Shown in pieces: positions 26,200-64,000 of a DNA stretch of 64,000 bases. The position numbers and the translations under genes are program-made. Below the pieces are notes generated by a model. The model saw nothing but the letters and a program-made list of their open reading frames with translations, searched no databases and had not been told where the DNA came from. Position 1 is the stretch's first letter; the number at the start of each line of letters is the position of its first letter. This stretch comes from Pseudomonas chlororaphis subsp. chlororaphis (GTDB taxonomy: Bacteria > Pseudomonadota > Gammaproteobacteria > Pseudomonadales > Pseudomonadaceae): the NCBI RefSeq assembly GCF_003945765.1, contig NZ_CP027712.1, forward strand, positions 2,790,001 through 2,854,000, written 5' to 3'.

Positions 26200-27150
26200 T
26201 CAGTTCGGGGCAGGCAGGGCGATGGGGGTCAACAGCGGCTGGCCGCTGAAGTGGGCGACGAGGTTCTTGCCCACCAGCTCCACGGTGGCCTGGGTCGCTT
26301 CCGGCGACAGCCCGGCGACGTGGGGCGTCAGCACCACATTGTTCAGGGTCTTCAAGGCGTCCGGTACCCGCGGTTCGTCGTCGAATACGTCCAGGGCTGC
26401 GCCGGCGATGCTGCGTTGCTCCAGGGCCTGCAGCAGGTCGGCGGTATTCACCACGCTGGCGCGGGCGATGTTCACCAGGAAACCCTCCGGCCCCAGGGCC
26501 TGCAGCACGGCTTTGTCGATCAGCTGGCGAGTGCCTATGCCGCCAGGCGTGGCGACCACCAGGAAGTCCGAGTGCCGCGCCAGTTCGGTCGGGGTCGGGC
26601 AGAAGCTGTAGGGCACGTCGCTGCGGATCTGCCGGTTGTGGTAGCTGACGCTCATGTCGAAGCCGTTGGCGCAGCGCTTGGCGATGGCCAGGCCGACGGC
26701 GCCGAGGCCGAGGACACCCAGGCGCTTGCCGGCCAGGGACGGGCGCATGACTTTCGGCCATTCGCCGCGCCGCACGGCGGCATCGGCACGGGGGATGTCA
26801 CGCACCAGCGACAGCAACAGGGCCATGGCATGGTCGGCCACCGACGAGGCGTTGACCCCGGCGCCGTTGCTCACCGCTATGCCACGGTTGCTCGCCGCCT
26901 GCAGGTCGACCTGCTCGTAGCCGGCGCCGATCACACAGATGATTTCCAGGTGCGCCAAGGCGGCGATTTCTTCGGCGCTCAGGCCCAGCGGACCACGGGT
27001 GAGCACCGCGTTGATCTGCCCGGCATGGGCCTTGATGGCGGCCGCCCGTTCGCTGGGCGTCGGCGCGAGGATCAGGTGGAAGCCCTGGTTTTCCAGAATC
27101 CACAGGTAGTCATTGATGGTTTCGACGAGGACCAGAACGGTGGCGGGCAT
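26200..27150 (-). CDS. D-isomer-specific 2-hydroxyacid dehydrogenase
   Basis: 316 residues. NAD(P)-dependent D-2-hydroxyacid dehydrogenase (glyoxylate/hydroxypyruvate reductase-like). Visible elements: VLGLGAVGLAIAKR dinucleotide site, NIARASVVNTADLLQALE with the substrate Arg, DVFDDEPRVPD with the catalytic Glu, and LTPHVAGLS with the catalytic His. The start is the ATG at 27148-27150, preceded by a clear AGGAG; longer frames upstream lack support. Reduces a 2-oxoacid to a D-hydroxyacid or the reverse; the substrate is unknown. Confidence 0.9.
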   Translation of the reverse strand: MPATVLVLVETINDYLWILENQGFHLILAPTPSERAAAIKAHAGQINAVLTRGPLGLSAEEIAALAHLEIICVIGAGYEQVDLQAASNRGIAVSNGAGVNASSVADHAMALLLSLVRDIPRADAAVRRGEWPKVMRPSLAGKRLGVLGLGAVGLAIAKRCANGFDMSVSYHNRQIRSDVPYSFCPTPTELARHSDFLVVATPGGIGTRQLIDKAVLQALGPEGFLVNIARASVVNTADLLQALEQRSIAGAALDVFDDEPRVPDALKTLNNVVLTPHVAGLSPEATQATVELVGKNLVAHFSGQPLLTPIALPAPN

Positions 27151-27290
27151 GCGTGTCTCCTGAAGGACTGAAGAGGGACGGACGGCGTACGGCGCAGCGA
27201 TGGCAACCGGCGTACGGCTCAGGGAGCTGCTGTACCGTGATAAACCACTCAAGCGCTCAAGATTGCGGATTGCAGGGCGCTTTGGCAAGG

Positions 27291-27410
27291 CGCGGTCGCG
27301 GGTTTTTCCCGCGACCGCGGCCTGGAGAGCGTCGCCGTTCTCGAGGGCCTGATCGCCAGCAAGCTTGGCTCCTACAGAAGCAGCGGCGTGCCTGACACTG
27401 CTCCTACAAG
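27291..27410. repeat. Perfect 12-bp hairpin plus REP-like sequence
   Basis: CGCGGTCGCGGG (27291-27302), a TTTTT loop and the exact complement (27308-27319), followed by REP-type sequence with GCCAGCAAGCTTGGCTCCTACAG. This lies between the hydroxyacid dehydrogenase and hydrolase genes, downstream of the latter. Possible mRNA-stabilising or terminating structure. Confidence 0.65.
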
Positions 27411-27418
27411 GAGGGCAT

Positions 27419-27958
27419 TCAGAAGCGAATATCAGCAGTTTTCACTCGCCGGACAAAGGCGCCGTCCAGGGTCGCATTGTGGTGGTCGATGATCGCCCGG
27501 GCCGGGAGCGCCGGGGTGTCCATGCAGGTATGGGCATCCTCCGCCAGTACGGCGGCGAACCCCAGGTCCAGGGTGGCGCGGCAGGTGGCGTCGATGCAGT
27601 ACTGGGTTTTCATGCCGACGATCACCAGCTCATCGACCTGCGCCGCCCGCAGGTGTTCGGCCAGCCCGGTGCCGACAAAACAATTGGGGCGGGTTTTGTC
27701 CAGCCGCCGGTCGCTGGCCTCGAGCTGCAATTGCGGCAGCAGTTGCCACGGCGCGCTGCCGGCGGCGATGGGCGAACCTTGCGGGCCGGTATGGCGCACG
27801 GCGATCACCGGCGCGCCGGCCTGCCGGGCGCGGTGGATCAACTGGTTGATATTGTCGAGCACGCGCTGCCCCTCGAAGGGCTGCTCTGGTCCGTGAAACA
27901 GGCCGACCTGCATGTCGACGATCAGCAGGGCGGGGCGCTGGGCCTGGGGTGACGGCAT
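27419..27958 (-). CDS. Isochorismatase-family cysteine hydrolase
   Basis: 179 residues, nicotinamidase/isochorismatase fold. Likely catalytic triad: Asp15 (LLIVDMQVGLF), Lys88 (RRLDKTRPNCF) and Cys121 (MKTQYCIDATC). It hydrolyses an amide or vinyl-ether bond in a small molecule; the substrate is not identified. The ATG (27956-27958) follows AGGAGAAACACC. The gene is preceded by an intrinsic terminator and a short frame with five successive Thr codons in the same direction, so expression is probably attenuated in response to charged tRNA-Thr. That would tie this enzyme to threonine or isoleucine supply, which is not a known link for the family. Confidence 0.85.
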   Translation of the reverse strand: MPSPQAQRPALLIVDMQVGLFHGPEQPFEGQRVLDNINQLIHRARQAGAPVIAVRHTGPQGSPIAAGSAPWQLLPQLQLEASDRRLDKTRPNCFVGTGLAEHLRAAQVDELVIVGMKTQYCIDATCRATLDLGFAAVLAEDAHTCMDTPALPARAIIDHHNATLDGAFVRRVKTADIRF

Positions 27959-27992
27959 GGTGTTTCTCCTGTGGGCCAGCTGGACGGAGAAA

Positions 27993-28024
27993 CAAAAGGC
28001 CCCGTCCATTGCTGGCGGGGCCTT
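27993..28024 (-). terminator. Attenuator terminator in the leader of the isochorismatase-family gene
   Basis: Stem AAGGCCCCG (27996-28004) with CGGGGCCTT (28016-28024), followed on the minus strand by TTTTGTTT. It lies 38 bp upstream of the hydrolase ATG, pointing into the gene, and no complete gene ends before it. Its 5' arm includes CCCGCC, able to pair instead with GGCGGG in the leader, forming an antiterminator. Confidence 0.75.
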
Positions 28025-28043
28025 GGGTTCGACTGTGCTGTTG

Positions 28044-28124
28044 TCAGCTCATGCAGCGACCACACGACCCGCCGGAAGCGGTCGTGGTGGTCGTGCGGGT
28101 GAGATGGCACGGGAAGAGATTCAT
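28044..28124 (-). CDS. Candidate threonine-rich leader peptide (attenuation)
   Basis: A 26-codon frame, MNLFPCHLTRTTTTTASG and so on to TGA, ending 20 bp before the terminator. Residues 11-15 are five consecutive Thr codons (28080-28094), with another Thr at residue 9. The Thr codons (CGACCACCACGACC) are complementary to the following GGTCGTGTGGTCG, forming the pause hairpin 1:2. GGCGGG in segment 2 can pair with CCCGCC of the terminator. This is the layout of amino-acid attenuators such as thrL. Weakness: no good ribosome site. A TTGACA about 30 bp upstream suggests a start near the ATG, possibly leaderless. Confidence 0.6.
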   Translation of the reverse strand: MNLFPCHLTRTTTTTASGGSCGRCMS

Positions 28125-28413
28125 GGCGCCGATCTTGGGGCTGGGGGTCAGGTACTGTCAATGCGCTGTGCGGCTTGTCTGCAAAGCCCAGGGATCCAGG
28201 CAGCCCACGGCGGTGCGCAGACTCAAACGATGGAGCGGGTTCATCCGGTGCTCATTTTCGGTTTTTCGACAAGTTGGATGAGCTTGAGGCAAGAAGCGTC
28301 ATTGCGTGCGCATGCGTGGATTGCATTGTAAGTATTCATTGAATGCATTGGTCGGAACATTCTGGTTTATGAAATATTTGTGACAGCCCTGGGGTGAGTC
28401 AGAAGGATCTGTA

Positions 28414-28563
28414 ATGCGTGGTTCCAAACACAAGGAAGCGTCGAGCGGTTTGCTTTCCGAGCGTTTTATGGCTTTTAAGCAATCGATGGCTGCTGTTGTA
28501 TTTTATCTTTTGCCATTCGTTTATCGAGTCAATACGCAAGCAGGCATATATGATCGTGGATGA
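28414..28563 (+). CDS. 49-residue peptide at the head of the 28-36 kb cluster
   Basis: ATG preceded at ideal spacing by AGAAGGA. The product begins MRGSKHKEASSGLLSERF, a polar, basic N-terminal half, continues with a hydrophobic stretch (MAAVVFYLLPFVYRV) and ends NTQAGIYDRG. The stop (28561-28563) lies 14 bases inside the next gene, so translation would be coupled. It has no recognised family. Options are a precursor peptide for the downstream modifying enzymes, a small membrane peptide, or a coupling leader for the nucleotidyltransferase. The AT-rich upstream region contains a TGCATT/AATGCA inverted repeat (28322-28347) that could be an operator. Confidence 0.5.
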   Translation: MRGSKHKEASSGLLSERFMAFKQSMAAVVFYLLPFVYRVNTQAGIYDRG

Positions 28564-29653
28564 ACGAGCAAATAATATGCTGCTGTTGGCCTTGTCCGCC
28601 GGTATGGCGTCGATAGATGAGGATGAAACAAGAGGTTATGTCAAATATCTTCTGAGCTGTATCGACAGGCTCTGGTTGAATGAAAATCAGGAGCTTGTTG
28701 TGCAGTTCATGCACAAGACGAAGATGGTGTCGTTTGTCGACAGTATTTTTCCATTCGTTGAAAGTTGTCGGCTTTTCAAATTGGCGAAACTTTATCATGC
28801 GCTGGTTGCAGTGACCGCCGTCAGGCGTTCAATGCTGGAGCCGGTATTCAAGGCTCTCAAGTCTCGCAATGTTGACGTCATGCCTTATAAAGGTGTGGAC
28901 TTTATTTATAACTACCGTAGTCGCGCGGCCCATCGCTTTATCTCCGATGTGGATTTGATCGTCAGACGTGATCAGTTGCCTCTTGCGCTTGACGTGTTTG
29001 AAAACCAGGGTTTTTTCCAGGCTCAGGTCAGCAAAAACAAGTTGTCGCCCGATGGACAGTCCTTATATGTACAGCCATGGGCGTCGAAGTCCATGGCCGC
29101 ATGGCGGAACGAGCAGGATATCCGACCGTATATCAAGGTGGCGAAAGTAGAGGCTTTGCAAGTCCATCAGGAAATACTTTCCGAATATACGGTTATTTAT
29201 CTGTCGGGGCAGCCGATGGTGATTGCCTATATCGATCTGGAGTTTTCCGTGCTGCCGGGGGGCGATGAACTGGATGTCTGGAGGCGGACACGAAATGCCA
29301 GGGTCGCCGGCAATGCTTACCCCGGGCTTTGCCGCGAACTCTATGTTTGTTCATTGCTCCAGAGGGCCTGTAGCGTATCGAACATTCTAGAGGGGGCGGC
29401 TGTTTATCCCTTCGTGGATGCACTCAGAGTGCTGGTCGCCGGAGGCATCGACTGGGATTACCTCTGGACGCTGGCGCAGAGATACCAGCTCGTTGTAGTC
29501 GTTTCTCGCGGCCTGATCGAAGTGGCCGGCATGGTGAGGTCCGCGATACCGGCGCACGTGTTCAGCCGATGCCGTAAAAACCTGCAAGCCCATGAAGCAT
29601 CCCATGTTCCGCCGCTATTGGAATGGCTGGGGACGATCAATGCTGTCCGCTAG
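28550..29653 (+). CDS. NTP_transf_5-type nucleotidyltransferase
   Basis: 367 residues. The core signature is VMPYKGVDFIYNYRSRAAHRFISDVDLIVRR, with K114-G115 and the metal-binding pair D133-x-D135, as in the NTP_transf_5 family of minimal nucleotidyltransferases. Members occur in peptide and polysaccharide clusters, including lasso peptide loci, where they are thought to act with HPr-kinase-like proteins. ATG 28550 is chosen over an upstream frame because the peptide gene with a strong ribosome site covers that space. Clearly AT-richer codon use than the surrounding chromosome suggests horizontal origin. The acceptor substrate is unknown. Confidence 0.75.
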   Translation: MIVDERANNMLLLALSAGMASIDEDETRGYVKYLLSCIDRLWLNENQELVVQFMHKTKMVSFVDSIFPFVESCRLFKLAKLYHALVAVTAVRRSMLEPVFKALKSRNVDVMPYKGVDFIYNYRSRAAHRFISDVDLIVRRDQLPLALDVFENQGFFQAQVSKNKLSPDGQSLYVQPWASKSMAAWRNEQDIRPYIKVAKVEALQVHQEILSEYTVIYLSGQPMVIAYIDLEFSVLPGGDELDVWRRTRNARVAGNAYPGLCRELYVCSLLQRACSVSNILEGAAVYPFVDALRVLVAGGIDWDYLWTLAQRYQLVVVVSRGLIEVAGMVRSAIPAHVFSRCRKNLQAHEASHVPPLLEWLGTINAVR

Positions 29654-29713
29654 TTGATGGTGTCTGGTGTCTGGTGTCCGGGGTACGGGTTAAACAACAA
29701 GGACGATGTGCAC

Positions 29714-30628
29714 ATGTGGATCAACACACCGAAGTCGAATGCCGGCCGTCTTTGCGTGATCGGAGGTACCGGTCAGGTCGGACAGTCTCTGATGTCATTG
29801 CTGGGAAGCTGCGAAAACTGGGAGGTGGTGTTCTATGTTGAAAGCCATGAACAAGCCTGTCGGCTGGAATGCAGCTTTCAAGATCATCTGGCGCAGAACT
29901 GGAAGATATCCTTCGATCGGGCCTCCATAGCTAATAGCCATACCGTTCTTTTTATCGCCGGTACCAAAACTGCTGCGCAGGGCAGTAAAAATGATTTGTT
30001 TGCCGACAACAAGAAGATTATCGATCGTTATCTGGAGTTGATGCGTGGGAAAAATATCATCCTGGTGACGAATCCCTGCACTCGGTTGGGTTGGTATGTC
30101 GAATCGACTATCGATGCTTTCACCATTGGCGTCGGCGTACAGAACGACTATAACCGCTTGTCTTATCAGAAACCTGATATCGATTATATTTTTGGGGCGC
30201 ACAATATACAGGAGCAAGTGTTCTACGATGTTCGAGAAGAGTGCGTGTTCGACGGATTTTCCAATGCGCAGCTCTATAGGTATCATCGTGAGACTCAAGA
30301 TAAATATGTGAGCGCGCAACTGTTTGACTTGCTCAGGGAGGAACTGAGCCAGGATGAATATTTTAAATGGTGGAAGATGCAGCGCTATCACTCGATTGCG
30401 AATCTCTCCAGTTATTCTTGTGCTCGCGCGATTGTTCAAACGCTCGATTATATCGGCGGGGCTCGAGCCACAAAGATCCATGGGGAAGTCAGGGTGAGAC
30501 TGGCTTCGGGTGACAGCGTCTTTGTCGGTGTGCCCATTTGCAATGACCAACTTTATTGCACTTCTCGATCACTTGAATCGTTTTTAAAGGCCAAGGACGA
30601 ATACTTTGAGAAATACAGGCTGGCGTGA
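29714..30628 (+). CDS. LDH/MDH-fold NAD-dependent dehydrogenase-like protein
   Basis: 304 residues. The Rossmann motif RLCVIGGTGQVGQSLMSLL lies at residues 12-30. SKNDLFADNKKIIDRYLELM followed by NIILVTNPCTRLG matches the lactate/malate dehydrogenase segment normally ending NPVD. The catalytic-type residues seem kept: Asp and Arg of NDYNRLSY and His of FGAHN. The Arg of the mobile loop appears replaced by Lys. It may reduce an unusual 2-oxoacid, such as the product of the KdsA paralogue downstream. The start follows AAGGACG. AT-rich like its upstream neighbour, with a 23-bp overlap with the next gene. Confidence 0.65.
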   Translation: MWINTPKSNAGRLCVIGGTGQVGQSLMSLLGSCENWEVVFYVESHEQACRLECSFQDHLAQNWKISFDRASIANSHTVLFIAGTKTAAQGSKNDLFADNKKIIDRYLELMRGKNIILVTNPCTRLGWYVESTIDAFTIGVGVQNDYNRLSYQKPDIDYIFGAHNIQEQVFYDVREECVFDGFSNAQLYRYHRETQDKYVSAQLFDLLREELSQDEYFKWWKMQRYHSIANLSSYSCARAIVQTLDYIGGARATKIHGEVRVRLASGDSVFVGVPICNDQLYCTSRSLESFLKAKDEYFEKYRLA

Positions 30629-31577
30629 GTTCGATTTGAATTACTATGGTTTGGTCGACTTGAGGGTCTGCTGTACGGGCCAGCAGGATGCCGAACTATT
30701 CGAAGGCGTCCTTAAGGATTATCTGCTGCCGTTCCTGCAGTTGAAGCAACCTGCTGGCCAACCTCATTACACAATTGTGTTGCGCCAAGGGGTTTTTACT
30801 CAGGTCGGACCCGATTGGCAGCCCATGACGTTCTTGTTGGATGACGCTGTTTCGGACTTTCGTTTTGGCAAGATAAAACAGTACTCCCCGTCAAGGCGCG
30901 ACATATTCAATCCTCTGAATGGAACGCTATTCAGCATTTCCGGCACCCAGATCGAGATTGTTTATGTGACCGAGGAGGCCTTGATCAAGGATGTTCAGCG
31001 GGTCATCAAACAACTGCTGATCACTGAAATAGAAAACACCGGCGGTGCCGTGCTGCATGCCTCCGCTTTTTCGTTGGCCGGTAGAGCCATTTGTTATGTC
31101 GGAGAGAAGGGGCAGGGCAAGACTACTTGCTTGTTGGAATCGCTGAAGGCCGAGGGTGCCCGGTACATCACCAATGACCGTTTGCTCCTCATACCGATTG
31201 CCGGGGCGTTCCATGTATTGGGGTGGTTCGAGGAGCTGCGGCTGGTTCAGCCCTCTGGCGGCAGGAAGAAGAAGGTAAGGGTCTCGCAACTGTGTGAGCC
31301 CTCGCAGATAGAGACGTGGCCGGTGCTGCCCAAACTTATCGTATTGCCCGACTGCCAGAGCAGGCTGGCGGGCGAGAGTGACGATCGGAAGGTGATAGCA
31401 GGGCAGTTGTTGACGCCTGTCGATCCACAGCGCCCGAAGTGGCTTGGGTATTCGAAGTCGCTGAGCTTTGACAGCAATGCCTTGCTCGACCCCCTCCCGG
31501 TAAAGCGTCTTGAGTGGCAATTCGAGGAGCGAGAGACGCTGCTTAGCAAGATCCGAGAGGTTGTTGCCAGTGTATGA
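30606..31577 (+). CDS. HPr-kinase-like protein (HprK C-terminal fold)
   Basis: 323 residues. The C-terminal half has GGAVLHASAFSLAGRAICYVGEKGQGKTTCLLESL: an LHAS strand followed by a P-loop G166-EKGQGKT-173, then YITNDRLLLIP with Asp191, as in HPr kinase/phosphorylase relatives. The N-terminal 120 residues are unassigned. Relatives phosphorylate serine residues in proteins or lasso peptides; others sit in polysaccharide operons. It starts with TTG at 30606 (AAGGA upstream), overlapping the LDH-like gene, and its stop overlaps the sulfotransferase. The phosphoacceptor is unknown. Confidence 0.75.
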   Translation: MRNTGWREFDLNYYGLVDLRVCCTGQQDAELFEGVLKDYLLPFLQLKQPAGQPHYTIVLRQGVFTQVGPDWQPMTFLLDDAVSDFRFGKIKQYSPSRRDIFNPLNGTLFSISGTQIEIVYVTEEALIKDVQRVIKQLLITEIENTGGAVLHASAFSLAGRAICYVGEKGQGKTTCLLESLKAEGARYITNDRLLLIPIAGAFHVLGWFEELRLVQPSGGRKKKVRVSQLCEPSQIETWPVLPKLIVLPDCQSRLAGESDDRKVIAGQLLTPVDPQRPKWLGYSKSLSFDSNALLDPLPVKRLEWQFEERETLLSKIREVVASV

Positions 31578-32292
31578 CCTCGTGCTGGTCGTCGGTCCTT
31601 GTAGGAGCGGGACTACTTTTGTCTTCAACGCTTTGTCGCACAGCGACTTCGTGGGTTTTTTCCAACCCTTGAAGCATCAGATCCGCTGCGCCCTCAGCGG
31701 GACGTCGAGCGAGACGCGACTGGAGCGTTATGCAGGGAGGCGCGTTGTGGTCAAGGAGGCATTTGGCCCCTACCGCCTGGAGGAGGCGGACTACGACCCG
31801 GTTCGCAAGGCTATCGATATTTTCCAGGCCGAAAAAGTCTTGCTCGTGCTGGTCTTGCGTTCGCCGGTGCAATGCCTGGCGTCATGGGAAAAAGCCTTTT
31901 ATCCCGACAGCCCTGTCAACGATCAAGTGTTCAACCAGGCCTATCTGAACACCCTGCGACTGCAGCGTAAGTATGCGCAGGTCTTGGACGTTGAAACCCT
32001 GATCCTGGAGCAGGAACAACCCTTCATTCGCACCCTGGACGAGATCAGGGCCAGGCTCGGAGGTACGGATGCGAGCCAGCGTTATAGCGACTATGTGAAA
32101 CCCCGGGACCCGCGTCGATACGAGGTTCGTGGCCTGCTGGACAAGGCGCTGCAGGGCAAGGACTACAACGCCGCTTACGTCTCGAAAGAGGCGGCAAGCG
32201 TGGACATGTCGCGAATAGCCGTGGCGTTGCAATGCTACGGCACCGCCCAGCGTGGCTGGAACGAACCGAGCGAGAACTTTCATGAGCTATGA
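31570..32292 (+). CDS. PAPS-dependent sulfotransferase
   Basis: 240 residues. The 5'-phosphosulfate loop VYDLVLVVGPCRSGTTFVFN lies at the N-terminus and the 3'-phosphate motif VLVLRSPVQCLASWEKAF near residue 100. These are the two PAPS-binding hallmarks of sulfotransferases. The GTG start at 31570 is preceded by GAGAGG and overlaps the kinase stop. The APS kinase encoded 1.5 kb downstream would supply PAPS. This suggests that the cluster product, or an intermediate, carries a sulfate ester or amide. The acceptor is unknown. Confidence 0.8.
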   Translation: MYDLVLVVGPCRSGTTFVFNALSHSDFVGFFQPLKHQIRCALSGTSSETRLERYAGRRVVVKEAFGPYRLEEADYDPVRKAIDIFQAEKVLLVLVLRSPVQCLASWEKAFYPDSPVNDQVFNQAYLNTLRLQRKYAQVLDVETLILEQEQPFIRTLDEIRARLGGTDASQRYSDYVKPRDPRRYEVRGLLDKALQGKDYNAAYVSKEAASVDMSRIAVALQCYGTAQRGWNEPSENFHEL

Positions 32293-33130
32293 AGTGCTGC
32301 ATAAGCTGTTTCCTGAGCGTCGCCAAGGGATTCGTGAGAACGAACTGTTTATCTTTGCCGGTCCCTGCGTGGTCGAAAATGAAAGCGTCACGTTCCGGAT
32401 TGCCGAAGAACTGGCGCAAGTTCGCCAGGCCTGCGGGATTGATATCGTATTCAAGGCGAGTTTCGTGAAGGCGAACCGAACCTCCAAGGACAGTTTCACC
32501 GGGCTGGCTCTGGACCAGTCGCTGAGCATCCTGCAGGCGGTCAAGACCCGCTTTGGCTTGAAGGTCCTGAGCGACGTGCACGAGTACACCAACCTCGACG
32601 AGATAGCCGACGTCGTCGATGTGTTGCAGACCCCGGCCTTTCTGGTGAGACAGACCGAATTCCTGAGGCGGGTAGCCGCTGCCGGTAAACCGATAAACAT
32701 CAAGAAGGGCCAGTTCCTGAGTCCGACGGAAATGATCAGTGCCGTCGACAAGATCCTGTCCTTTGGTAATAGCGACTTGTTGGTATGCGAGCGCGGCAGC
32801 TCATTTGGCTACAACTACCTGGTCAACGATTTTCGAGGGATGCAGCAGTTGATGCAGAGGGCGCAACCATTGGTATTCGACGCCACGCATTCCGTTCAGC
32901 GCCCCGGCGCTTTGGGTGATAGTTCCGGTGGGGACGCCAGGTACGCGCCGAGGCTGGCCAAGGCGGCAGTGGCGGCGGGCGTGGATGGCATCTTTATGGA
33001 AACCCACCCGGACCCCGCCGCGGCGCTGAGCGACGGTCCCAACATGATCCCTTTGGCTCTCGTCAAGCGCTTGCTGGGCGAGTTGAAGGAGCTTCATCAA
33101 GTGGTCAAAGGGCAATCTGCCTATATCTGA
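32282..33130 (+). CDS. KdsA paralogue (3-deoxy-8-phosphooctulonate synthase-like PEP aldolase)
   Basis: 282 residues, full length for KDO-8-phosphate synthase, which condenses PEP with arabinose 5-phosphate. Conserved parts: FAGPCVVENE, FKASFVKANRTS, VLSDVHEY, NIKKGQFLSPTEM, ERGSSFGYNYLV, VFDATHSVQ and METHPDPAAALSDGPNM. The common FDKANR Asp is Val here. The gene overlaps the sulfotransferase stop. No kdsB, kdsC, kdsD or lipopolysaccharide transferase is nearby, so it is probably not the housekeeping enzyme. It may make a 3-deoxy-ulosonate for the cluster product, possibly from another aldehyde. Confidence 0.85.
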   Translation: MSYEVLHKLFPERRQGIRENELFIFAGPCVVENESVTFRIAEELAQVRQACGIDIVFKASFVKANRTSKDSFTGLALDQSLSILQAVKTRFGLKVLSDVHEYTNLDEIADVVDVLQTPAFLVRQTEFLRRVAAAGKPINIKKGQFLSPTEMISAVDKILSFGNSDLLVCERGSSFGYNYLVNDFRGMQQLMQRAQPLVFDATHSVQRPGALGDSSGGDARYAPRLAKAAVAAGVDGIFMETHPDPAAALSDGPNMIPLALVKRLLGELKELHQVVKGQSAYI

Positions 33131-33174
33131 TACAGGTCTGATCGTACCGATCAATCCAGCAAAAGGAGCTCGCT

Positions 33175-33828
33175 GTGAATTGGCAAAGTTGGCATGAGAA
33201 CTACCGGGATTTTTCGCCACTGCAAGCACGACTTGTGGAAGTCAGTCGGCAGGTCGCGGAGGCGATCGACTCGATGGCGTCACCGCATGTGCAGATATTG
33301 AGTCTGTGCGCAGGCGATGGGCGTGATCTATTGCAGGCCTTGTCGTCGGTGCAGGCGGGCAAAGCGGTGGACGCGACCTTGATCGAGTTCGATCAGGCGT
33401 TGGTTGACCAGGGCCGAAGAGCATTCGCCGCTCAGGGGTGGGGCGACAGCGTGCGGTTTCGCTGCGCGGATGCGACGTTGTTTTCCACCTACCGGGATTT
33501 GCCCAAGGTCGAGCTGGTCATGGTGTGCGGAGTATTCGGCAATGTACGCAACGAGCATGTGCAGAGGCTGATAGGTGCGTTGCCGGGGTTTTGCCGTCCC
33601 GGGGCCCGGGTCGTGTGGACCCGAAGCCTCAATGAATTCGACGATGGGGAAGCGGCCGCAGACCACATAAGGCGCTGTTTTGCGCGCTCTGGTTTTCGCG
33701 AGGCGGTGTTCGCGCGGACCCCGGAAGGTACATTTGCCGTCGGCAGTTTCATTTATGAAGGGGAGCAAGAATGTCTGCCGGCTACGGGGCAGATGTTCGA
33801 GTTTTCTGCATTCTGGGATCGGCACTGA
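33175..33828 (+). CDS. Class I SAM-dependent methyltransferase-like protein
   Basis: 217 residues. SAM-binding motif I is VQILSLCAGDGRDLLQAL (residue 40 on), followed by the acidic ATLIEFDQALVDQG and ELVMVCGVFGNV. The GTG start at 33175 has a perfect AAAGGAG. The stop overlaps the APS kinase start. It probably O- or N-methylates the cluster product, but the acceptor cannot be read. Confidence 0.75.
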   Translation: MNWQSWHENYRDFSPLQARLVEVSRQVAEAIDSMASPHVQILSLCAGDGRDLLQALSSVQAGKAVDATLIEFDQALVDQGRRAFAAQGWGDSVRFRCADATLFSTYRDLPKVELVMVCGVFGNVRNEHVQRLIGALPGFCRPGARVVWTRSLNEFDDGEAAADHIRRCFARSGFREAVFARTPEGTFAVGSFIYEGEQECLPATGQMFEFSAFWDRH

Positions 33829-34451
33829 TGGCGGATAGACAGATGCTCGCTCAGAACCTGACCTGGCACGGCAGCTCGGTAACGCCCGAGATGCGGGCGA
33901 TATTGTCGGCGCAACGCCCTTTGACACTGTGGTTCACCGGATTGAGCGCCGCGGGCAAGAGCACGCTGGCCTTCAACCTGGAGAGCTTGCTGGTCGCCAA
34001 ACGCATTCATTGCTGCGTCCTCGATGGCGACAATGTCCGTCATGGCCTGTGCCGCGACCTGGGTTTCGACAGTCAGGGTAGGACTGAGAATATACGGCGG
34101 GTGGCGGAAGTCGCGCGGCTGATGAACGATGCCGGGCTGGTCGTCATGGCGGCTTTCATTTCTCCCTATCGGCGGGATCGGGAGCTGGCCAGGAGCATTA
34201 TCGGGGTGGAGCGCTTTCAGGAAGTGCATGTCAGCGCCCCGCTTCATGTCTGCGAAAGCCGGGACCCGAAGGGGCTTTACAGGAAAGCACGCAGGGGCGA
34301 GCTAAGTGGCTTTACCGGTGTCGATGACCCCTATGAAGTACCGGACTGTCCGCACGTTTACCTAGACACCTCCCGTACTTCTTTGTCTGAGTGTCTCGAA
34401 CGGCTGTCCGGGTTGGTAACCGTTCGTCCGCACCACGACGCGCAGGGATAA
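33828..34451 (+). CDS. cysC: Adenylylsulfate (APS) kinase
   Basis: 207 residues, full-length APS kinase that phosphorylates APS to PAPS. Motifs: P-loop GLSAAGKST (from residue 38), LDGDNVRHGLCRDLGF, RTENIRRVAEVARLMNDAG, AAFISPYRRDRE and RDPKGLYRKARRG. All expected active-site positions are present; the P-loop has Ala where Gly/Ser is common. No ATP sulfurylase lies in the cluster, so APS must come from the housekeeping pathway. With the sulfotransferase it forms a self-contained PAPS module. The ATG overlaps the methyltransferase stop. Confidence 0.9.
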   Translation: MADRQMLAQNLTWHGSSVTPEMRAILSAQRPLTLWFTGLSAAGKSTLAFNLESLLVAKRIHCCVLDGDNVRHGLCRDLGFDSQGRTENIRRVAEVARLMNDAGLVVMAAFISPYRRDRELARSIIGVERFQEVHVSAPLHVCESRDPKGLYRKARRGELSGFTGVDDPYEVPDCPHVYLDTSRTSLSECLERLSGLVTVRPHHDAQG

Positions 34452-34498
34452 ATGCTGTGGCTGCGGGCACTTGGCCACGGAATGGGGCAGGCATCTGA

Positions 34499-35644
34499 TT
34501 GATTGCGTTCGTATTGTTTTGGGCTCAGTTCCTGGTCGTTGGCAATCTCCTCATCATGCCGGTGTTATTGCTGGGCGTGCGTGACGGGTTTTCCCTGGAC
34601 GCCTGTTCAATGGGGCTGTTGCTGGCTGCGTTTCCCTTGATGGCATTGATTGGCAACCTGTTCGTCGGGCGGTTCATCGATAAAGTCGGTCGGCCCCTGA
34701 GCCTGCAACTGGGGCTCTGCATGAGTGCTGCCTGCTTTCTCCTCATGTTCTTTGCCGAGAACGGCAGCGCCGCCATTGTCTCGCGGGGCCTGACAGGTCT
34801 GTGCATGCCCCTGATAGGGGCGAGCCTGTATGCGGTGATCGCGGATGTCTATGCCGGCCAGGCGCGTCGGCGAGTCACCGCGCTGGTCAGCACCGCCGCT
34901 TCATTGGCGGGACTGGTCATTCTGCCGCTGGGGATAGGCTTCTCTACCGCGGCGAGATGGCATTACGTTTTTCTGGCGTTCGCCATGGCCAGCCTTGGCC
35001 TGGGAGTGATCAGCTACTTTTCATACTATCGCCGCTATGCCCCCGCGCGGGCGGAGGCGGCCGGTGTCAGGCAAGGTGCCGCGAGGCTTTATCTGGATGA
35101 TGGGGTATTACGCAGCTATGCCTTGTTGTACTGGTTTCAGGGCTTTGCCTATTTCGCATTGATTTCATGGATGCCGTCATATTTTCAACGGCTGCTGGAC
35201 GACGGCGAGTCGTCCATGGCGCTGTTTTTCGGCGGAGCCGGGGCTGTGCTGGGGGCATGGTGCCTGACGGCGTTGGCAGGCAGGCGAGCGAAGACGTTCT
35301 ACGTGGTGCTTGGGATCAACGGTATCGCCGTCCTGAGTCTTGCAGCTTCCACCCTGGGCTTGTGGGCCGCCTGTGCGGCCTGGTTCGTCTACAACGCCTG
35401 TCGCCAGTTGTTGTCCGCGCATATCCTCTCGGGAGCGAACGCGCATTGCGGCAATTCCGACCGCGGGACCTTGAACGCGACGATGAACGTGGGATACCAG
35501 GCGGTGGGAGCCGTTGCCGCATTCGTCGTCGCGCAACTGCCTTTCGTGCCTGATTCCATTTCGATCATTTGCATCATGGCGACGCTGATGTTGTTGCCGG
35601 GTTTTTACTTTTATAAAAGCCTCGGCCGTTCGGATGCATTGTGA
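34499..35644 (+). CDS. MFS exporter of the cluster
   Basis: 381 residues with about 11-12 transmembrane helices. The loop 2-3 motif GNLFVGRFIDKVGRPLSLQLG is diagnostic for the major facilitator superfamily. A TTG start at 34499 is required by an in-frame TGA directly upstream; translation initiation may therefore be weak. It is the last gene of the cluster, 47 bp after cysC, and likely exports the finished product. The substrate is unknown. Confidence 0.8.
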   Translation: MIAFVLFWAQFLVVGNLLIMPVLLLGVRDGFSLDACSMGLLLAAFPLMALIGNLFVGRFIDKVGRPLSLQLGLCMSAACFLLMFFAENGSAAIVSRGLTGLCMPLIGASLYAVIADVYAGQARRRVTALVSTAASLAGLVILPLGIGFSTAARWHYVFLAFAMASLGLGVISYFSYYRRYAPARAEAAGVRQGAARLYLDDGVLRSYALLYWFQGFAYFALISWMPSYFQRLLDDGESSMALFFGGAGAVLGAWCLTALAGRRAKTFYVVLGINGIAVLSLAASTLGLWAACAAWFVYNACRQLLSAHILSGANAHCGNSDRGTLNATMNVGYQAVGAVAAFVVAQLPFVPDSISIICIMATLMLLPGFYFYKSLGRSDAL

Positions 35645-36337
35645 GTCATGAAGGGGTGCATGTGAGGGGGTGAGAGATATGGCACCCAAGGCAACGGGTG
35701 GGAAGAATACGGAAGTCGCCGGATAAAACAGGATGGCCCCCAAGAATACTGGGCTTTATGAGGCTATTCGGGGGGCGAGTTTCTTTCGGTGCCAAACACG
35801 TTGCAGGATGCATACTTAAGAAGAATGAGCGGATGGCTCGTTTCTCGTGGGCTGTTTGGCATTTCGACTACGTGCTAGTCGTTTGCATGAAGTGGCCGGT
35901 TTCAAAGGATTACATGTCTATTTGGCGATTCAGTTTGCTATCTGGACGTGGGGCATAGGAAACGAACAAAGACCGAAGCGCTCGCCGGTCCGGCTCGGCC
36001 TATTAAAGCGCTGCATCAACGAGCCGGGCGGGCGGGTAATCGATGGGGCCTGTGGACTACGCTGAGCTTGCTTGAGTGTCTTGAACGGGTGCGGGTCAGC
36101 GCTCCTGACCAGCAGGTCGCTTTCAGGACACGATGGGTCGCCTGGGTGCAATCGCCGGACCATGGCGATGGGCAAGCTTCCAGGATGCCCCGGACCCGGT
36201 GCGCCAAGACACTTGGCCGGAGAGCAAGAATGGCGACCGAGGATCCACGCCTCCGTGACGTGGCCGGGCGCTGCAGCCGAAGACTCCGGACGGCTACCGC
36301 TATATAGCGATGTCGTTCGAGATGCCGAGGTACGTTT
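35645..36337. other. Intergenic region between the cluster and the formate dehydrogenase genes
   Basis: About 690 bp without a convincing gene. Two tiny frames with similar starts are present. One is at 35679-35726 (MAPKATGGKNTEVAG, preceded by GAGGGGGTGAG) and the other at 35733-35819 (28 codons, MAPKNTGLYEAIRG then a Cys-containing tail). The left 250 bp are AT-rich like the cluster start. The right part is chromosomal-like and should hold the fds promoter, but no clear consensus was seen. Confidence 0.35.
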
Positions 36338-36820
36338 ATGTCTGATGACACGCTTCACCTGCCTCTGATTCACAGCGTATTGGAGCGCGAAAAGGACACT
36401 CCCGGTGCCTTGTTGCCCATTCTCCACGCCATTCAGGACGGTTGCGGGTACATCCCCGACACCGCCATCCCCGAGATCGCCCATGCCCTCAACCTCAGCC
36501 TGGCTGAAGTGCACGGCGTGATCAGCTTCTACCACGATTTCCGTACCACGCCGCCCGCGCGCCATACCCTGCGCCTGTGCCGGGCCGAGTCCTGCCAGAG
36601 CCGGGGCGCCGAAGGCCTGGCCGCGCAGCTGCGCGAACAACTGTTGCTGGACGACCATGGCACCACGGCCGATGGCAGTATCAACTTGCGACCGGTCTAT
36701 TGCCTGGGGGCCTGCGCCTGTTCGCCGGCCCTGGAACTGGACGGCGAACTGCACGCCCGGATCACCCCCGAGCGCCTGCGCCAGCTGGTGAGTGGCTGCC
36801 TGGAGGATGGCGCATGCTGA
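36338..36820 (+). CDS. fdsG: NAD-dependent formate dehydrogenase gamma subunit
   Basis: 160 residues, NuoE-like [2Fe-2S] subunit. Cluster ligands are in LCRAESCQSRGAEG and YCLGACACSPAL (C-x4-C and C-x3-C). The N-terminal helical part LLPILHAIQDGCGYIPDTAIPEIAHALNLSLAEVHGVISFYHDF is typical. First gene of fdsGBAD; its stop overlaps the fdsB ATG. The complex oxidises formate to CO2 and reduces NAD+ in the cytoplasm, and fdsG links the electron path to the FMN subunit. Confidence 0.93.
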   Translation: MSDDTLHLPLIHSVLEREKDTPGALLPILHAIQDGCGYIPDTAIPEIAHALNLSLAEVHGVISFYHDFRTTPPARHTLRLCRAESCQSRGAEGLAAQLREQLLLDDHGTTADGSINLRPVYCLGACACSPALELDGELHARITPERLRQLVSGCLEDGAC

Positions 36821-38373
36821 AGCTCTATATCCCCCGCGATTCGGTGGCCCGTGCCGTGGGCGCGGACAAGGTGGCCGTGGCGCTGGTGCGTGAGGCCGAG
36901 CGTCGACAATTGCCGTTGGAGCTGCGCCGCACCAGCTCCCGTGGCCTCTATTGGCTGGAGCCGCTGCTGGAAGTGGACAGCGCCGACGGCCGGCTGGGTT
37001 TCGGCCCCCTCACTCCGGAGGACGTGCCGAGCCTGCTCGACGCCCTGGCGGGCGACCCCGGCAGCCATCCGTTGGCCCTGGGGCCGGTGGAGCAGATCCC
37101 TTATCTGCAGAGCCAGCAGCGCCTGCTGTTCGCTCGGGCCGGCATCACTCAACCGCTGTCCCTGGACGACTACCGCGCCCAGGGCGGTTTCCAGGGCCTG
37201 GCCCGGGCCATCCAGATGGAGGGCGCGCAGGTGGTCGCCAGCGTGCTCGACTCCGGCCTGCGCGGCCGGGGAGGCGCGGCCTTTCCGGCGGGGATCAAGT
37301 GGCGCACCGTGCGCGAAGCCGCGGGTGCCCAGAAATACGTGGTCTGTAACGCCGATGAAGGCGACTCTGGCACCTTCGCCGACCGCATGCTGATGGAAGG
37401 CGACCCCTTCCTGCTGATCGAAGGCATGATCATCGCCGGCATCGCGGTGGGGGCCAGCAAGGGCTATATCTACGTGCGCTCGGAATACCCGGACGCCATC
37501 GGCACCCTGAACGAGGCCCTGCGCATCGCCCGCGAAGCCGGTTACCTGGGGGCGAATGTCGGCGGTAGCGGCCGCCCCTTCGACCTGGAGGTGCGGGTCG
37601 GGGCCGGCGCCTACATCTGCGGTGAGGAAACGGCGCTGCTGGAGTCCCTCGAGGGCAAGCGCGGCACGGTTCGCGCCAAGCCGCCGCTGCCGGCCCTGCA
37701 GGGCCTGTTCGGCTTGCCAACGCTGGTGCACAACGTGCTGACCCTGGCTTCGGTGCCGATCATCCTGGAGAAGGGCGCGCAGTTCTATCGCGACTTCGGC
37801 ATGGGGCGTTCCCTGGGCACCATGCCGTTCCAGCTGGCCGGCAACGTCCGCCAGGCGGGCCTGGTGGAACGCGCCTTCGGCCTGAGCCTGCGTGAGCTGG
37901 TGGAAGGTTATGGCGGGGGTACCGCCAGCGGCCGGCCACTGAAGGCGGCGCAAGTGGGTGGGCCGCTGGGGGCCTGGGTGCCCCCCGCGCAGTTCGATAC
38001 GCCGCTGGACTACGAAGCGTTCGCCGCCATGGGCGCGATGCTCGGCCACGGCGGCGTGGTGGTCGCCGACGACAGCCTGGACATGGCCCACATGGCCCGT
38101 TTCGCCTTGCAGTTCTGCGCCGAGGAGTCCTGCGGCAAGTGCACGCCGTGCCGGATCGGCTCGACCCGTGGAGTGGAGGTGGTGGACCGTTTGATCGCCA
38201 GCACCGACGCCGCGGCCCGTGAGGAACAGGCGCTGCTGCTGCAAGACCTTTGCGACACCCTGCAATACGGCTCGCTCTGTGCCCTGGGCGGGATGACTTC
38301 CTACCCTGTCGCCAGCGCCCTCAAGCACTTTCCCGCCGACTTCGGTCTGGCGACCACGGAGGCCGACCAATGA
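36814..38373 (+). CDS. fdsB: NAD-dependent formate dehydrogenase beta subunit
   Basis: 519 residues, NuoF-like subunit with FMN and NAD sites and a [4Fe-4S] cluster. Motifs: LRGRGGAAFPAGIKW, VVCNADEGDSGTFADR, GAGAYICGEETALLESLEG, and the cluster EESCGKCTPCRIGSTR with a later LCALGG. An extra N-terminal 120 residues (LKLYIPRDSVARAVGADKVA) is the thioredoxin-like part typical of FdsB. The ATG at 36814 overlaps the fdsG stop. It passes hydride electrons to NAD+. Confidence 0.94.
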   Translation: MLKLYIPRDSVARAVGADKVAVALVREAERRQLPLELRRTSSRGLYWLEPLLEVDSADGRLGFGPLTPEDVPSLLDALAGDPGSHPLALGPVEQIPYLQSQQRLLFARAGITQPLSLDDYRAQGGFQGLARAIQMEGAQVVASVLDSGLRGRGGAAFPAGIKWRTVREAAGAQKYVVCNADEGDSGTFADRMLMEGDPFLLIEGMIIAGIAVGASKGYIYVRSEYPDAIGTLNEALRIAREAGYLGANVGGSGRPFDLEVRVGAGAYICGEETALLESLEGKRGTVRAKPPLPALQGLFGLPTLVHNVLTLASVPIILEKGAQFYRDFGMGRSLGTMPFQLAGNVRQAGLVERAFGLSLRELVEGYGGGTASGRPLKAAQVGGPLGAWVPPAQFDTPLDYEAFAAMGAMLGHGGVVVADDSLDMAHMARFALQFCAEESCGKCTPCRIGSTRGVEVVDRLIASTDAAAREEQALLLQDLCDTLQYGSLCALGGMTSYPVASALKHFPADFGLATTEADQ

Positions 38374-41246
38374 TCAATATCTTCGACCCTACCAGTGATA
38401 TCGACCTCGGCACCCCGGCCCGCGAAAGCGCGGTACAGGTCAGCCTGACCATCGACGGCCGGGAAATCAGTGTCGCTTCCGGCACCTCGGTGATGCGCGC
38501 CGCGGCGTTGCTCGGCACCACTATCCCCAAACTCTGCGCCACCGACAGCCTGGAAGCCTTTGGCTCCTGCCGCATGTGCCTGGTGGAGATCGAGGGCATG
38601 CGCGGCTATCCGGCCTCCTGCACTACGCCTGTGACCGAGGGCATGGTCGTCCACACCCAGACTTCCAAGCTCGCCAGCCTGCGGCGCAACGTGATGGAGC
38701 TGTATATCTCCGACCACCCGCTGGACTGCCTGACCTGCTCGGCCAACGGCAATTGCGAGTTGCAGACGGTGGCGGGGCAGGTGGGCCTGCGGGAAGTGCG
38801 CTACGGCTATGAGGGCGCCAACCACCTGGACGAACAGAAGGATGTCTCCAACCCCTATTTCGACTACGACCCGAGCAAGTGCATCGTCTGCAACCGCTGC
38901 GTGCGTGCCTGCGAGGAAACCCAGGGCACCTTCGCCCTGACCATCAGCGGGCGCGGCTTCGATTCCCGGGTGGCGGCGGCCGGCGGCGACAATTTCCTCG
39001 ACTCCGAGTGCGTGTCCTGCGGCGCCTGCGTGCAGGCCTGCCCGACCGCCACCCTGATGGAAAAGAGCGTGGTGGAAATCGGCCAGCCCGAGCGCAGCGT
39101 CATCACCACCTGCGCCTACTGTGGCGTGGGCTGCTCTTTCCGCGCGGAAATGAAAGGCGAGCAACTGGTGCGCATGGTCCCGGACAAGAACGGCCAGGCC
39201 AACCACGGCCATTCCTGCGTCAAGGGCCGCTTCGCCTGGGGCTACGCCACCCACCCGGACCGCATCACCAAGCCGATGATCCGCAAGCACATCAGCGATC
39301 CGTGGCAGGAAGTCAGCTGGGAAGAGGCGGTCACCTACGCGGCCAGCGAGTTGCGCCGCATCCAGCTGAAATACGGGCGCGACTCGATCGGCGGCATCAC
39401 CTCCAGCCGTTGCACCAACGAAGAGACCTACCTGGTGCAGAAGCTGGTGCGCACCGCCTTTGGCAACAACAACGTCGACACCTGCGCCCGGGTCTGCCAT
39501 TCGCCCACCGGCTACGGCCTCAAGCAGACGCTGGGCGAATCCGCTGGCACCCAGAGTTTCGACTCGGTGATGCAGGCCGACGTCATCCTGGTGATGGGTG
39601 CCAACCCTACCGACGCGCACCCGGTATTCGGCTCCCAGCTCAAGCGCCGCCTGCGCCAGGGCGCGCGGCTGATCGTCATCGACCCACGGCGCATCGACCT
39701 GGTGGATTCGCCCCATGCCCGTGCCGACCTGCATTTGCAGCTGCGTCCGGGCACCAACGTGGCGATGCTCAACGCATTGGCCCATGTGATCGTCACCGAG
39801 GGCCTGGTCAACCAGCTTTTCGTCGATCAGCGCTGCGAAGCGGCGGACTTCGCCCGCTGGCGCGATTTCGTCAGCCTGGCGGAAAACTCCCCCGAGGTCC
39901 TGGGGCCGATCTGCGGCGTGCCCGCCAGGCAGATCCGCGACGCCGCGCGGCTTTACGCCACCGGGGGCAATGCGGCCATCTACTACGGCCTGGGCGTCAC
40001 CGAGCACAGCCAGGGCAGCACCTCGGTGATGGGCATCGCCAACCTGGCGATGGTCACCGGCAACATCGGCCGCGAGGGTGTCGGGGTCAACCCGCTGCGC
40101 GGGCAGAACAACGTCCAGGGCTCCTGCGACATGGGGTCCTTCCCCCACGAGCTGCCTGGCTATCGGCATATTTCCAACGAGGCGGTGCGCGCCGAGTTCG
40201 AACAGGCCTGGAACGTGACCCTGCAACCCGACCCGGGCCTGCGCATTCCCAATATGTTCGAGGCGGCCCTGGACGGCACCTTCAAGGCGCTCTACTGCCA
40301 GGGCGAGGACATTGCCCAGAGCGACCCCAACACCCAGCACGTGACCGCCGCCCTGACGGCCATGGAGTGCGTGGTGGTGCAGGACATCTTCCTCAACGAG
40401 ACGGCCAAGTTCGCCCATGTGTTCCTGCCGGGCAGCTCCTTCCTCGAGAAGGACGGCACCTTCACCAACGCCGAGCGCCGTATCTCGCGGGTGCGCAAGG
40501 TGATGGAGCCGCTGGCCGGCAAGGCCGACTGGGAAGCCACCATCGCCCTGGCCGAGGCCCTGGGCTACAAAATGCAGTACAACCACCCGTCGGAGATCAT
40601 GGATGAGATCGCGCGCCTGACGCCGACCTTCCACCGCGTCAGCTACACCGAGCTGGACCGGCACGGCAGCCTGCAATGGCCGTGCAACGATGCCGCTCCG
40701 GACGGCACGCCGACCATGCACATCGATGAATTCGTGCGCGGCAAGGGCCGCTTCATGCTCACCGGCTACGTGCCCACCGAGGAGAAGGTCAACAGCCGCT
40801 ACCCGTTGCTGCTGACCACCGGGCGCATCCTCAGCCAGTACAACGTCGGCGCCCAGACCCGGCGCACCGACAACGTGGCCTGGCACGAGGAGGACCGCCT
40901 GGAAATCCACCCGACCGACGCCGAGAACCGCGGCATCGTCGATGGCGACTGGGTCGGTATCGGCAGTCGCGCCGGGCAGACAGTGCTGCGGGCCAAGGTC
41001 AGCGAGCGGGTGGCGCCGGGGGTGGTCTACACCACCTTCCACTTCCCGGAATCGGGCGCCAACGTGATCACCACCGACAACTCCGACTGGGCCACCAACT
41101 GCCCGGAATACAAGGTGACGGCGGTAGAGGTGGTGCGGGTCAACCAGCCTTCCGAATGGCAGAAGCGTTATCAGGCGTTCAGTGATGAACAGGGGCGCCT
41201 GCTGCGGGAGCGTCGTCACGCCGAGAAAGCCGAGGTGCGCCGATGA
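38370..41246 (+). CDS. fdsA: NAD-dependent formate dehydrogenase alpha (catalytic) subunit
   Basis: 958 residues, molybdenum bis-MGD formate dehydrogenase. N-terminal [2Fe-2S] region (FGSCRMCLVEIEG), His/Cys cluster (DHPLDCLTCSANGNCELQ), two ferredoxin-type clusters (CIVCNRCVRACEE, CVSCGACVQACPTATL) and the FdhF-type cluster CAYCGVGCSFRAEM. The active-site Cys lies in NNNVDTCARVCHSPTG, so it is a Cys, not selenocysteine, enzyme. The ATG 38370 overlaps the fdsB stop. Maturation needs an FdhD-type sulfurtransferase, which is not encoded in this window. Confidence 0.95.
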   Translation: MINIFDPTSDIDLGTPARESAVQVSLTIDGREISVASGTSVMRAAALLGTTIPKLCATDSLEAFGSCRMCLVEIEGMRGYPASCTTPVTEGMVVHTQTSKLASLRRNVMELYISDHPLDCLTCSANGNCELQTVAGQVGLREVRYGYEGANHLDEQKDVSNPYFDYDPSKCIVCNRCVRACEETQGTFALTISGRGFDSRVAAAGGDNFLDSECVSCGACVQACPTATLMEKSVVEIGQPERSVITTCAYCGVGCSFRAEMKGEQLVRMVPDKNGQANHGHSCVKGRFAWGYATHPDRITKPMIRKHISDPWQEVSWEEAVTYAASELRRIQLKYGRDSIGGITSSRCTNEETYLVQKLVRTAFGNNNVDTCARVCHSPTGYGLKQTLGESAGTQSFDSVMQADVILVMGANPTDAHPVFGSQLKRRLRQGARLIVIDPRRIDLVDSPHARADLHLQLRPGTNVAMLNALAHVIVTEGLVNQLFVDQRCEAADFARWRDFVSLAENSPEVLGPICGVPARQIRDAARLYATGGNAAIYYGLGVTEHSQGSTSVMGIANLAMVTGNIGREGVGVNPLRGQNNVQGSCDMGSFPHELPGYRHISNEAVRAEFEQAWNVTLQPDPGLRIPNMFEAALDGTFKALYCQGEDIAQSDPNTQHVTAALTAMECVVVQDIFLNETAKFAHVFLPGSSFLEKDGTFTNAERRISRVRKVMEPLAGKADWEATIALAEALGYKMQYNHPSEIMDEIARLTPTFHRVSYTELDRHGSLQWPCNDAAPDGTPTMHIDEFVRGKGRFMLTGYVPTEEKVNSRYPLLLTTGRILSQYNVGAQTRRTDNVAWHEEDRLEIHPTDAENRGIVDGDWVGIGSRAGQTVLRAKVSERVAPGVVYTTFHFPESGANVITTDNSDWATNCPEYKVTAVEVVRVNQPSEWQKRYQAFSDEQGRLLRERRHAEKAEVRR

Positions 41247-63892: not shown

Positions 63893-64000
63893 AGCGTCCT
63901 GGCCATTTGAAAAGGTGGTCGCAGTAGATCAAATCTTTTAGGACGGTAGCAAGGCGCAGTCTTGTGCCCTTTCTTGCCTGAAGCGTGTTCGTCTGCGCCG

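What the first reader, a model, noticed from the sequence alone, without database searches (positions are those of the whole stretch)
28414..35644. Uncharacterised biosynthetic-type operon: peptide, nucleotidyltransferase, LDH-like, HprK-like, sulfotransferase, KdsA paralogue, methyltransferase, APS kinase, MFS exporter
Nine same-strand genes, mostly overlapping or within a few tens of bases, form one unit with an exporter at the end. The combination of a PEP-condensing KdsA paralogue, a 2-oxoacid-dehydrogenase fold, a PAPS module, two phospho/nucleotidyl-transfer proteins and a methyltransferase matches no pathway I know. The first genes are AT-rich, suggesting transfer. A working model is a 3-deoxy-ulosonate-like or peptide scaffold that is reduced, methylated, phosphorylated or nucleotidylated, sulfated and exported.
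Basis: partly seen in the sequence, partly recalled or inferred. Interest (0 to 1): 0.85.

Follow-up and report, generated by a model that had tools for sequence, protein, structure and literature searches.

The report
Mobile eight-gene operon, product unknown
A compact set of eight genes that has moved between soil bacteria as one block and probably makes and exports an unknown phosphorylated and sulfated molecule; its core of three unusual enzymes recurs elsewhere with other partners, once beside a small glycine-rich peptide.

Summary
The operon is real; its first 'peptide gene' is not supported. Eight same-strand genes (28550-35644) overlap or nearly abut. All eight recur in the same order in Azotobacter vinelandii (sulfotransferase-like gene split by an insertion) and in one other same-genus genome, with pairwise dN/dS 0.05-0.24 against the latter. 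The block is mobile: three of four same-genus genomes read at the flank lack it, with other short sequence in its place, and one genome has it without the neighbouring formate-dehydrogenase-like block. A further relative keeps seven genes, without KdsA; another keeps only the LDH-like, HprK-like and sulfotransferase-like genes, behind a different nucleotidyltransferase, a membrane protein and a 35-residue glycine-rich peptide frame. So that trio is the invariant core and KdsA an accessory. LDH-like and HprK-like proteins are rare: 11 clusters each among 5.8 billion sequences. Best reading: a mobile biosynthesis-and-export cassette for a phosphorylated, sulfated acidic metabolite; whether its scaffold is Kdo8P, a peptide or something else stays open. 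It lacks the lasso protease and is no capsule/LPS fragment by the tests made. The sulfotransferase and methyltransferase assignments are weak.

The parts
   Evidence: Shine-Dalgarno AGAAGGA and frame shared with L022, but no codon-position bias and random-change test not significant
28550..29653 (+). NT: PF14907 nucleotidyltransferase with SDVDLIV motif; start at ATG 28550, since the upstream extension holds two stops in L022
   Evidence: PF14907 49 bits against cut-off 31.2; alignment A5; stops
29714..30628 (+). LDH-like: Rossmann oxidoreductase of lactate/malate dehydrogenase type with conserved D145, R148, H163
   Evidence: Pfam hits below cut-off; profile against PDB malate dehydrogenase E 1.4e-8, aligned part residues 11-149; alignments A2, A3
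30606..31577 (+). HprK-like P-loop protein, invariant H151, GxxGxGKT loop with K172, N190-D191
   Evidence: alignment A1, 11 rows; HprK_rel_B 20.2 bits and FomB kinase 16.3 bits, both far below cut-off; no Pfam family
31570..32292 (+). ST: sulfotransferase-like, GPCRSGTTF P-loop and R-x-P-x(5)-S motif; probable GTG start overlapping the HprK-like stop (ORF opens at TTG 31510)
   Evidence: alignment A4; start read; homologue L024:7685-8404 passes PF00685, 23.6 bits against 22; window copy only 13.4 bits to PF13469
32282..33130 (+). KdsA paralogue, 3-deoxy-8-phosphooctulonate synthase, AGPC type; ATG start inside the ST-like end
   Evidence: TIGR01362 338.5 bits against cut-off 314; 42% identical to the genome's other copy, which reads GGMN; start
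33175..33828 (+). MT: methyltransferase-like
   Evidence: PF12147 34.2 bits against cut-off 21; alignment A6
33771..34451 (+). APS kinase (CysC-like); an ATG at 33828, overlapping the MT stop by one base, is a likely start
   Evidence: TIGR00455 229.7 bits against cut-off 138.7; PDB APS kinases; alignment A7; start
34499..35644 (+). MFS exporter
   Evidence: PF07690 107.2 bits against cut-off 33.4
28147..35654 (+). approximate limits of the inserted block; not resolved to the base
   Evidence: left limit from the end of similarity to L052, L054, L055, right limit from L022, where 35654 is followed about 40 bases later by 41711

Best explanation
A horizontally mobile biosynthesis-and-export cassette. 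Shown: eight-gene unit, conserved order, discrete insertion, purifying selection, and a LDH-like/HprK-like/ST-like core common to the five loci read. Inferred: the LDH-like enzyme interconverts a 2-oxo and a 2-hydroxy acid, the HprK-like protein phosphorylates a hydroxyl, the nucleotidyltransferase acts on that phosphate or the same acceptor, the APS kinase raises PAPS and the ST-like protein sulfates, the methyltransferase caps, and the MFS protein exports. In the branch with KdsA, the dedicated synthase would supply Kdo8P or a like 2-oxo-3-deoxy sugar acid as the acid that the LDH-like enzyme reduces; branches without it would use another acid or the cell's own Kdo8P.
For: All eight genes in order in L022 and A. 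vinelandii L003; seven without KdsA in L023, the trio in L024. Block absent at the site in 3 of 4 fetched genomes; the fourth stretch shows no right flank. dN/dS 0.05-0.24 against L022. D145, R148 and H163 of the LDH-like family invariant in 12 of 12 rows. H151, K172 and D191 of the HprK-like family invariant in 11 of 11 rows. KdsA and APS kinase pass curated cut-offs.
Against: No enzyme has been assayed and no product is known. The LDH-like match to solved structures ends near residue 149, and its histidine lies 15 residues after the arginine, closer than in LDH/MDH as I recall them. The window's ST passes no Pfam cut-off and has no NCBIfam match, and the ST profile finds no sulfotransferase in the PDB. 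The HprK-like profile finds nothing in the PDB, the NT profile only chance matches. The methyltransferase homologue in L023 matches no methyltransferase family. The genome has four other APS-kinase-like matches, so the extra copy is not strictly needed for PAPS.
Confidence: 0.5

Rival explanations
1. The trio is a tailoring module for a ribosomal peptide or peptide-tethered intermediate, as HprK-like kinases, nucleotidyltransferases and perhaps putative sulfotransferases are in some lasso clusters; in the window the precursor is the 49-aa frame or lies elsewhere.
For: In L024 the trio lies downstream, on the same strand, of a 35-codon glycine-rich peptide frame with a Shine-Dalgarno site. That peptide family recurs in 4 of 398 genomes of the genus. 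In L033 homologues of L024's nucleotidyltransferase (39% identity) and membrane protein (47%) lie 1-4 kb from the peptide, on the other strand. Lasso clusters with kinase, nucleotidyltransferase and putative sulfotransferase genes are described in passages of PMC8498205 and, for the first two, PMC9266682.
Against: The peptide was not found in the window's genome, G307 or G361. The 49-aa frame shows no constraint. No Transglut_core3 (lasso B2 by recall) in the genome and one PqqD match only, 3.4 Mb from the window. The other three genomes with the peptide (G037, G055, G169) were not among the 4 of 398 with the LDH-like protein.
Confidence: 0.22
2. The operon makes a sulfated, methylated Kdo derivative only, KdsA being the first committed step, and the KdsA-less relatives draw on housekeeping Kdo8P.
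For: KdsA is kept under strong purifying selection (dN/dS 0.074 against L022, 0.084 against L003), passes the equivalog cut-off, and differs at the active site from the genome's other copy.
Against: Not in the 20-kb stretches L023 and L024. No CMP-Kdo synthetase, Kdo8P phosphatase or glycosyltransferase among the eight proteins.
Confidence: 0.18
3. A regulatory, stress or defence module that modifies a host protein or RNA and makes no secreted metabolite.
For: Nucleotidyltransferases and HprK-like kinases modify proteins in other systems (general knowledge); mad2 match of the methyltransferase, 33.8 bits.
Against: The only other defence-model match among the eight is 14.3 bits; KdsA, APS kinase and an MFS exporter fit metabolism.
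Confidence: 0.1

Closest known systems
Phosphorylated and phosphoglycosylated lasso peptide clusters (paeninodin, pseudomycoidin)
   Same: HprK-like kinase with a nucleotidyltransferase and, in some clusters, a putative sulfotransferase gene (passages of PMC8498205 and PMC9266682)
   Different: No Transglut_core3 match in the genome, no supported precursor; the His-Lys-Asp-Asp motif of lasso kinases (passage of PMC9266682) reads, by eye and without a lasso kinase in the alignment, H-K-N-D here in 11 of 11 rows; extra LDH-like, KdsA, APS kinase, MFS
Lactate/malate dehydrogenase superfamily
   Same: N-terminal Rossmann part and D, R, H residues that I read as the catalytic ones (roles recalled)
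   Different: Window copy below Pfam cut-offs; similarity to solved structures ends near residue 149; 11 protein clusters found
Kdo8P synthase of the AGPC (metal) class
   Same: Passes TIGR01362; KANRTS and AGPC regions align to a solved Kdo8P synthase; class assignment by Cys is recalled
   Different: Sits in a mobile operon, not with LPS genes
APS kinase and PAPS-dependent sulfotransferases
   Same: APS kinase clear; ST motifs present
   Different: ST family divergent, no PDB sulfotransferase match
Pantoea agglomerans Eh318 seven-gene cluster (passage of PMC4010436)
   Same: Has an MFS transporter and a sulfotransferase
   Different: Other named genes (carbamoyltransferase, ATP-grasp, aminotransferase); no LDH-like, HprK-like or KdsA named; whether its sulfotransferase is related to ST was not tested

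Membership tests
Lasso peptide cluster | lasso B2 protease (Transglut_core3, by recall) in the genome | tested here: not met
   0 matches in own genome; control rang in 2 of 14 genomes, over the cut-off in 1
Lasso peptide cluster | asparagine-synthetase-like C protein in the operon | tested here: not met
   none among the eight proteins; the rest of the genome was not searched for it
Lasso-type HprK-like kinase | His-Lys-Asp-Asp catalytic motif (PMC9266682 passage) | tested here: inconclusive
   H151, K172, N190, D191 in 11 of 11 rows; matched by eye, no lasso kinase was aligned
Kdo8P synthase | equivalog profile score | tested here: met
   TIGR01362 338.5 against 314
APS kinase | profile score and P-loop | tested here: met
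   TIGR00455 229.7 against 138.7; alignments
PAPS-dependent sulfotransferase | family profile | tested here: inconclusive
   L024 homologue passes PF00685; window and L023 copies do not; no PDB sulfotransferase match
Lactate/malate dehydrogenase | Rossmann match and catalytic D, R, H | tested here: inconclusive
   profile E 1.4e-8, aligned to residue 149; D145, R148, H163 invariant; window copy below Pfam cut-off
PF14907 nucleotidyltransferase | profile score and acidic motif | tested here: met
   49 against 31.2 bits; D133 and D135 invariant in 4 rows
Methyltransferase (PF12147) | profile score | tested here: met
   34.2 against 21 bits for the window copy; the L023 homologue has no such match
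Capsule or LPS locus | glycosyltransferases, flippase or polymerase in the block | tested here: not met
   none among the eight; flanking frames are of other kinds by eye

The most novel reading that the evidence does not exclude
LDH-like, HprK-like and ST-like form a portable redox-phosphate-sulfate module that is re-docked on different scaffolds: in one lineage on a ribosomal glycine-rich peptide of an undescribed RiPP-like family, in another on a sugar acid made by a dedicated Kdo8P synthase, giving a sulfated ulosonate-type metabolite class not seen before.
Probability: 0.15. Interest if true: 0.85.

Novelty: new variant of a known kind. Interest (0 to 1): 0.6.

Why it matters
It defines a rare, mobile operon whose core enzymes matched no described pathway in the searches made, gives a conserved gene set to test, and links a new LDH-like enzyme family to a peptide family that may mark undescribed ribosomal natural products in Pseudomonas. 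If the KdsA branch does use Kdo8P, that precursor would have a use outside the cell envelope.

Tried and rejected
The 49-aa peptide as precursor: tested by codon positions and by random change placement, not supported. NT start at GTG 28418: rejected, stops in L022. PqqD-like domain in the L024 nucleotidyltransferase: only E 0.086, not seen in its homologue in L033, and not returned by the PqqD search of G125; dropped. Lasso cluster: not supported. Defence system: no support beyond one methyltransferase match. Rfam families in 27000-37000: none at gathering scores. Promoter and terminator scan: 3 promoter-like sites (shuffles 5.4) and 11 terminator-like sites (shuffles 9.3), so nothing above chance. 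Plasmids, searched with the Pantoea relative P0022, and phages, searched with the window's LDH-like protein: no match. Viral contigs with the LDH-like alignment: 20 stretches matched a pattern, none confirmed. HprK-like search in the class: 13 of 369 genomes, but 12 are short P-loop matches; with the alignment in relatives: 4 of 115, 3 of them short matches. LDH-like alignment in 239 genus genomes: 5 of 239, namely G361, G125 and three short matches near E 1e-4; no new member. A Pantoea relative of the LDH-like protein (P0022) could not be placed in a genome. Literature: searches returned no paper; some searches returned lists, in which no title names this operon; of these I saw passages of PMC8498205, PMC9266682, PMC4010436 and PMC8719888 and only the listing of the rest. 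The one sulfotransferase passage of PMC8719888 concerns an NRPS cluster.
Full report
Observation. The stretch 28414-35644 holds eight long same-strand genes. Family searches name them as PF14907 nucleotidyltransferase (NT), LDH/MDH-like protein, HprK-like protein, sulfotransferase-like protein (ST), KdsA, methyltransferase (MT), APS kinase and MFS exporter; the LDH-like, HprK-like and ST names rest on sub-threshold matches, motifs and homologues. Several overlap: the HprK-like frame opens 23 bases before the end of the LDH-like gene, ST can start at GTG 31570 in the HprK-like stop, KdsA at ATG 32282 inside the ST end, and APS kinase at ATG 33828 on the MT stop. The first 'peptide' of 49 aa is not supported: its 24 differences to L022 fall 7, 8, 9 on the codon positions of 45 codons, and random placement of the same changes keeps the frame open in 46% of trials, 39% of which have as few residue changes.

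Conservation. L023 (G307, whose contig length equals that listed for a P. vanderleydeniana protein) has seven, without KdsA; its NT and MFS are only 28% and 27% identical. L024 (G125, contig length as listed for P. bijieensis) has of the eight only LDH-like, HprK-like and ST. The LDH-like protein was found in 4 of 398 genomes of the genus, the window's own included; in the protein database it gave 8 clusters of about 5.8 billion sequences, 11 with a profile, one of them named Pantoea. The HprK-like protein gave 11 clusters. ST was not searched there. LDH-like and HprK-like entries share contig lengths for four further records and adjacent locus tags for one of them; shared length suggests one contig but does not prove it, and several entries stay unpaired. 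dN/dS is 0.05-0.24 for the eight against L022; against L003 it is 0.075-0.19 for seven genes, saturated for the LDH-like gene (pN/pS 0.133), and for ST rests on one piece of 132 codons.

A mobile block. G+C is 55.5% in 28401-35654 against 64.7% for the window outside 28147-41710. Of four same-genus genomes fetched for the flank (L052-L055), three have similarity to window 28137-28147 followed, after 0.7-1.2 kb, by window 41696-41710; L053 shows only the left flank in the stretch fetched. The gap in those three is not empty: it holds other short ORFs, so the junctions are not resolved and the site looks variable. In L022 the operon end (35654) is followed about 40 bases later by window 41711. 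So the operon and the formate-dehydrogenase-like block (36338-41246, named by eye) appear to be separate insertions at one site.

Enzymes. KdsA passes the Kdo8P synthase equivalog cut-off, is 42% identical to the genome's other copy, and has AGPC where that copy has GGMN; that these mark metal-dependent and metal-independent classes is recalled. The LDH-like family keeps D145, R148 and H163 in all 12 rows, which I read as the LDH catalytic residues (recalled); the best profile match to a PDB malate dehydrogenase (E 1.4e-8) ends at residue 149. The HprK-like family keeps H151, the P-loop K172 and D191, with N190 before the last (11 of 11 rows). ST keeps a GPCRSGTTF loop and an R-x-P-x(5)-S motif in 4 of 4 rows, but only the L024 member passes a sulfotransferase cut-off and the PDB search found none. 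MT passes PF12147 in the window, its L023 homologue matches no methyltransferase family, and the MT profile has only weak PDB matches. The APS kinase is clear; four other APS-kinase-like matches lie in the genome.

Peptide lead. In L024 a 35-codon frame with a Shine-Dalgarno site (12960-13067, minus strand) precedes a nucleotidyltransferase (Polbeta match below cut-off), a membrane protein (by eye; no Pfam match) and then the trio, all on one strand. The peptide recurs in 4 of 398 genomes, five places; those read share IRVL..(Q/K)EQ and a glycine-rich end. In L033 homologues of the L024 nucleotidyltransferase and membrane protein lie 1-4 kb away on the other strand; L034 and L035 hold other enzymes nearby. 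It was not found in G000, G307 or G361. This is a reason to consider a ribosomal scaffold for the L024 operon, not for the window.

Verdict. Most likely a mobile operon for an exported phosphorylated and sulfated acidic metabolite (0.5). A peptide-scaffold reading (0.22) and a pure Kdo reading (0.18) remain. Lasso and capsule/LPS membership fail features that were tested. No title in the literature lists names this operon (none returned by 39, 57, 58, 79).

Noticed in passing
L024 12960-13067 (-), L033 9924-10034 (+), L035 172-285 (-), L034 505-603 region (+): A family of 35-37 residue peptides sharing IRVL..(Q/K)EQ and a glycine-rich end (7-8 glycines in a row in L024, L033, L035; GGGHGGG in L034), a second L035 copy cut by the contig end, lying near varied enzyme genes (thymidylate-kinase, HisG, AIRS, TauD matches; others by eye); possibly an undescribed RiPP-like family.
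   Followed up: partly
L003 11490-12518 (-) and 16459-17490 (+): Two very similar transposase-like ORFs (by eye) in A. vinelandii: one splits the sulfotransferase-like gene, the other lies just after the MFS gene.
   Followed up: no
window 36338-41246: Formate-dehydrogenase-like block (by eye), absent from L022 at the same site: probably a second insertion.
   Followed up: partly
window 19811-23542 (-): 1243-aa ORF that looks like a subtilase-type autotransporter (by eye, no family search).
   Followed up: no
window 23001-24000 and 63001-64000: Two further low G+C stretches (0.49) outside the operon.
   Followed up: no
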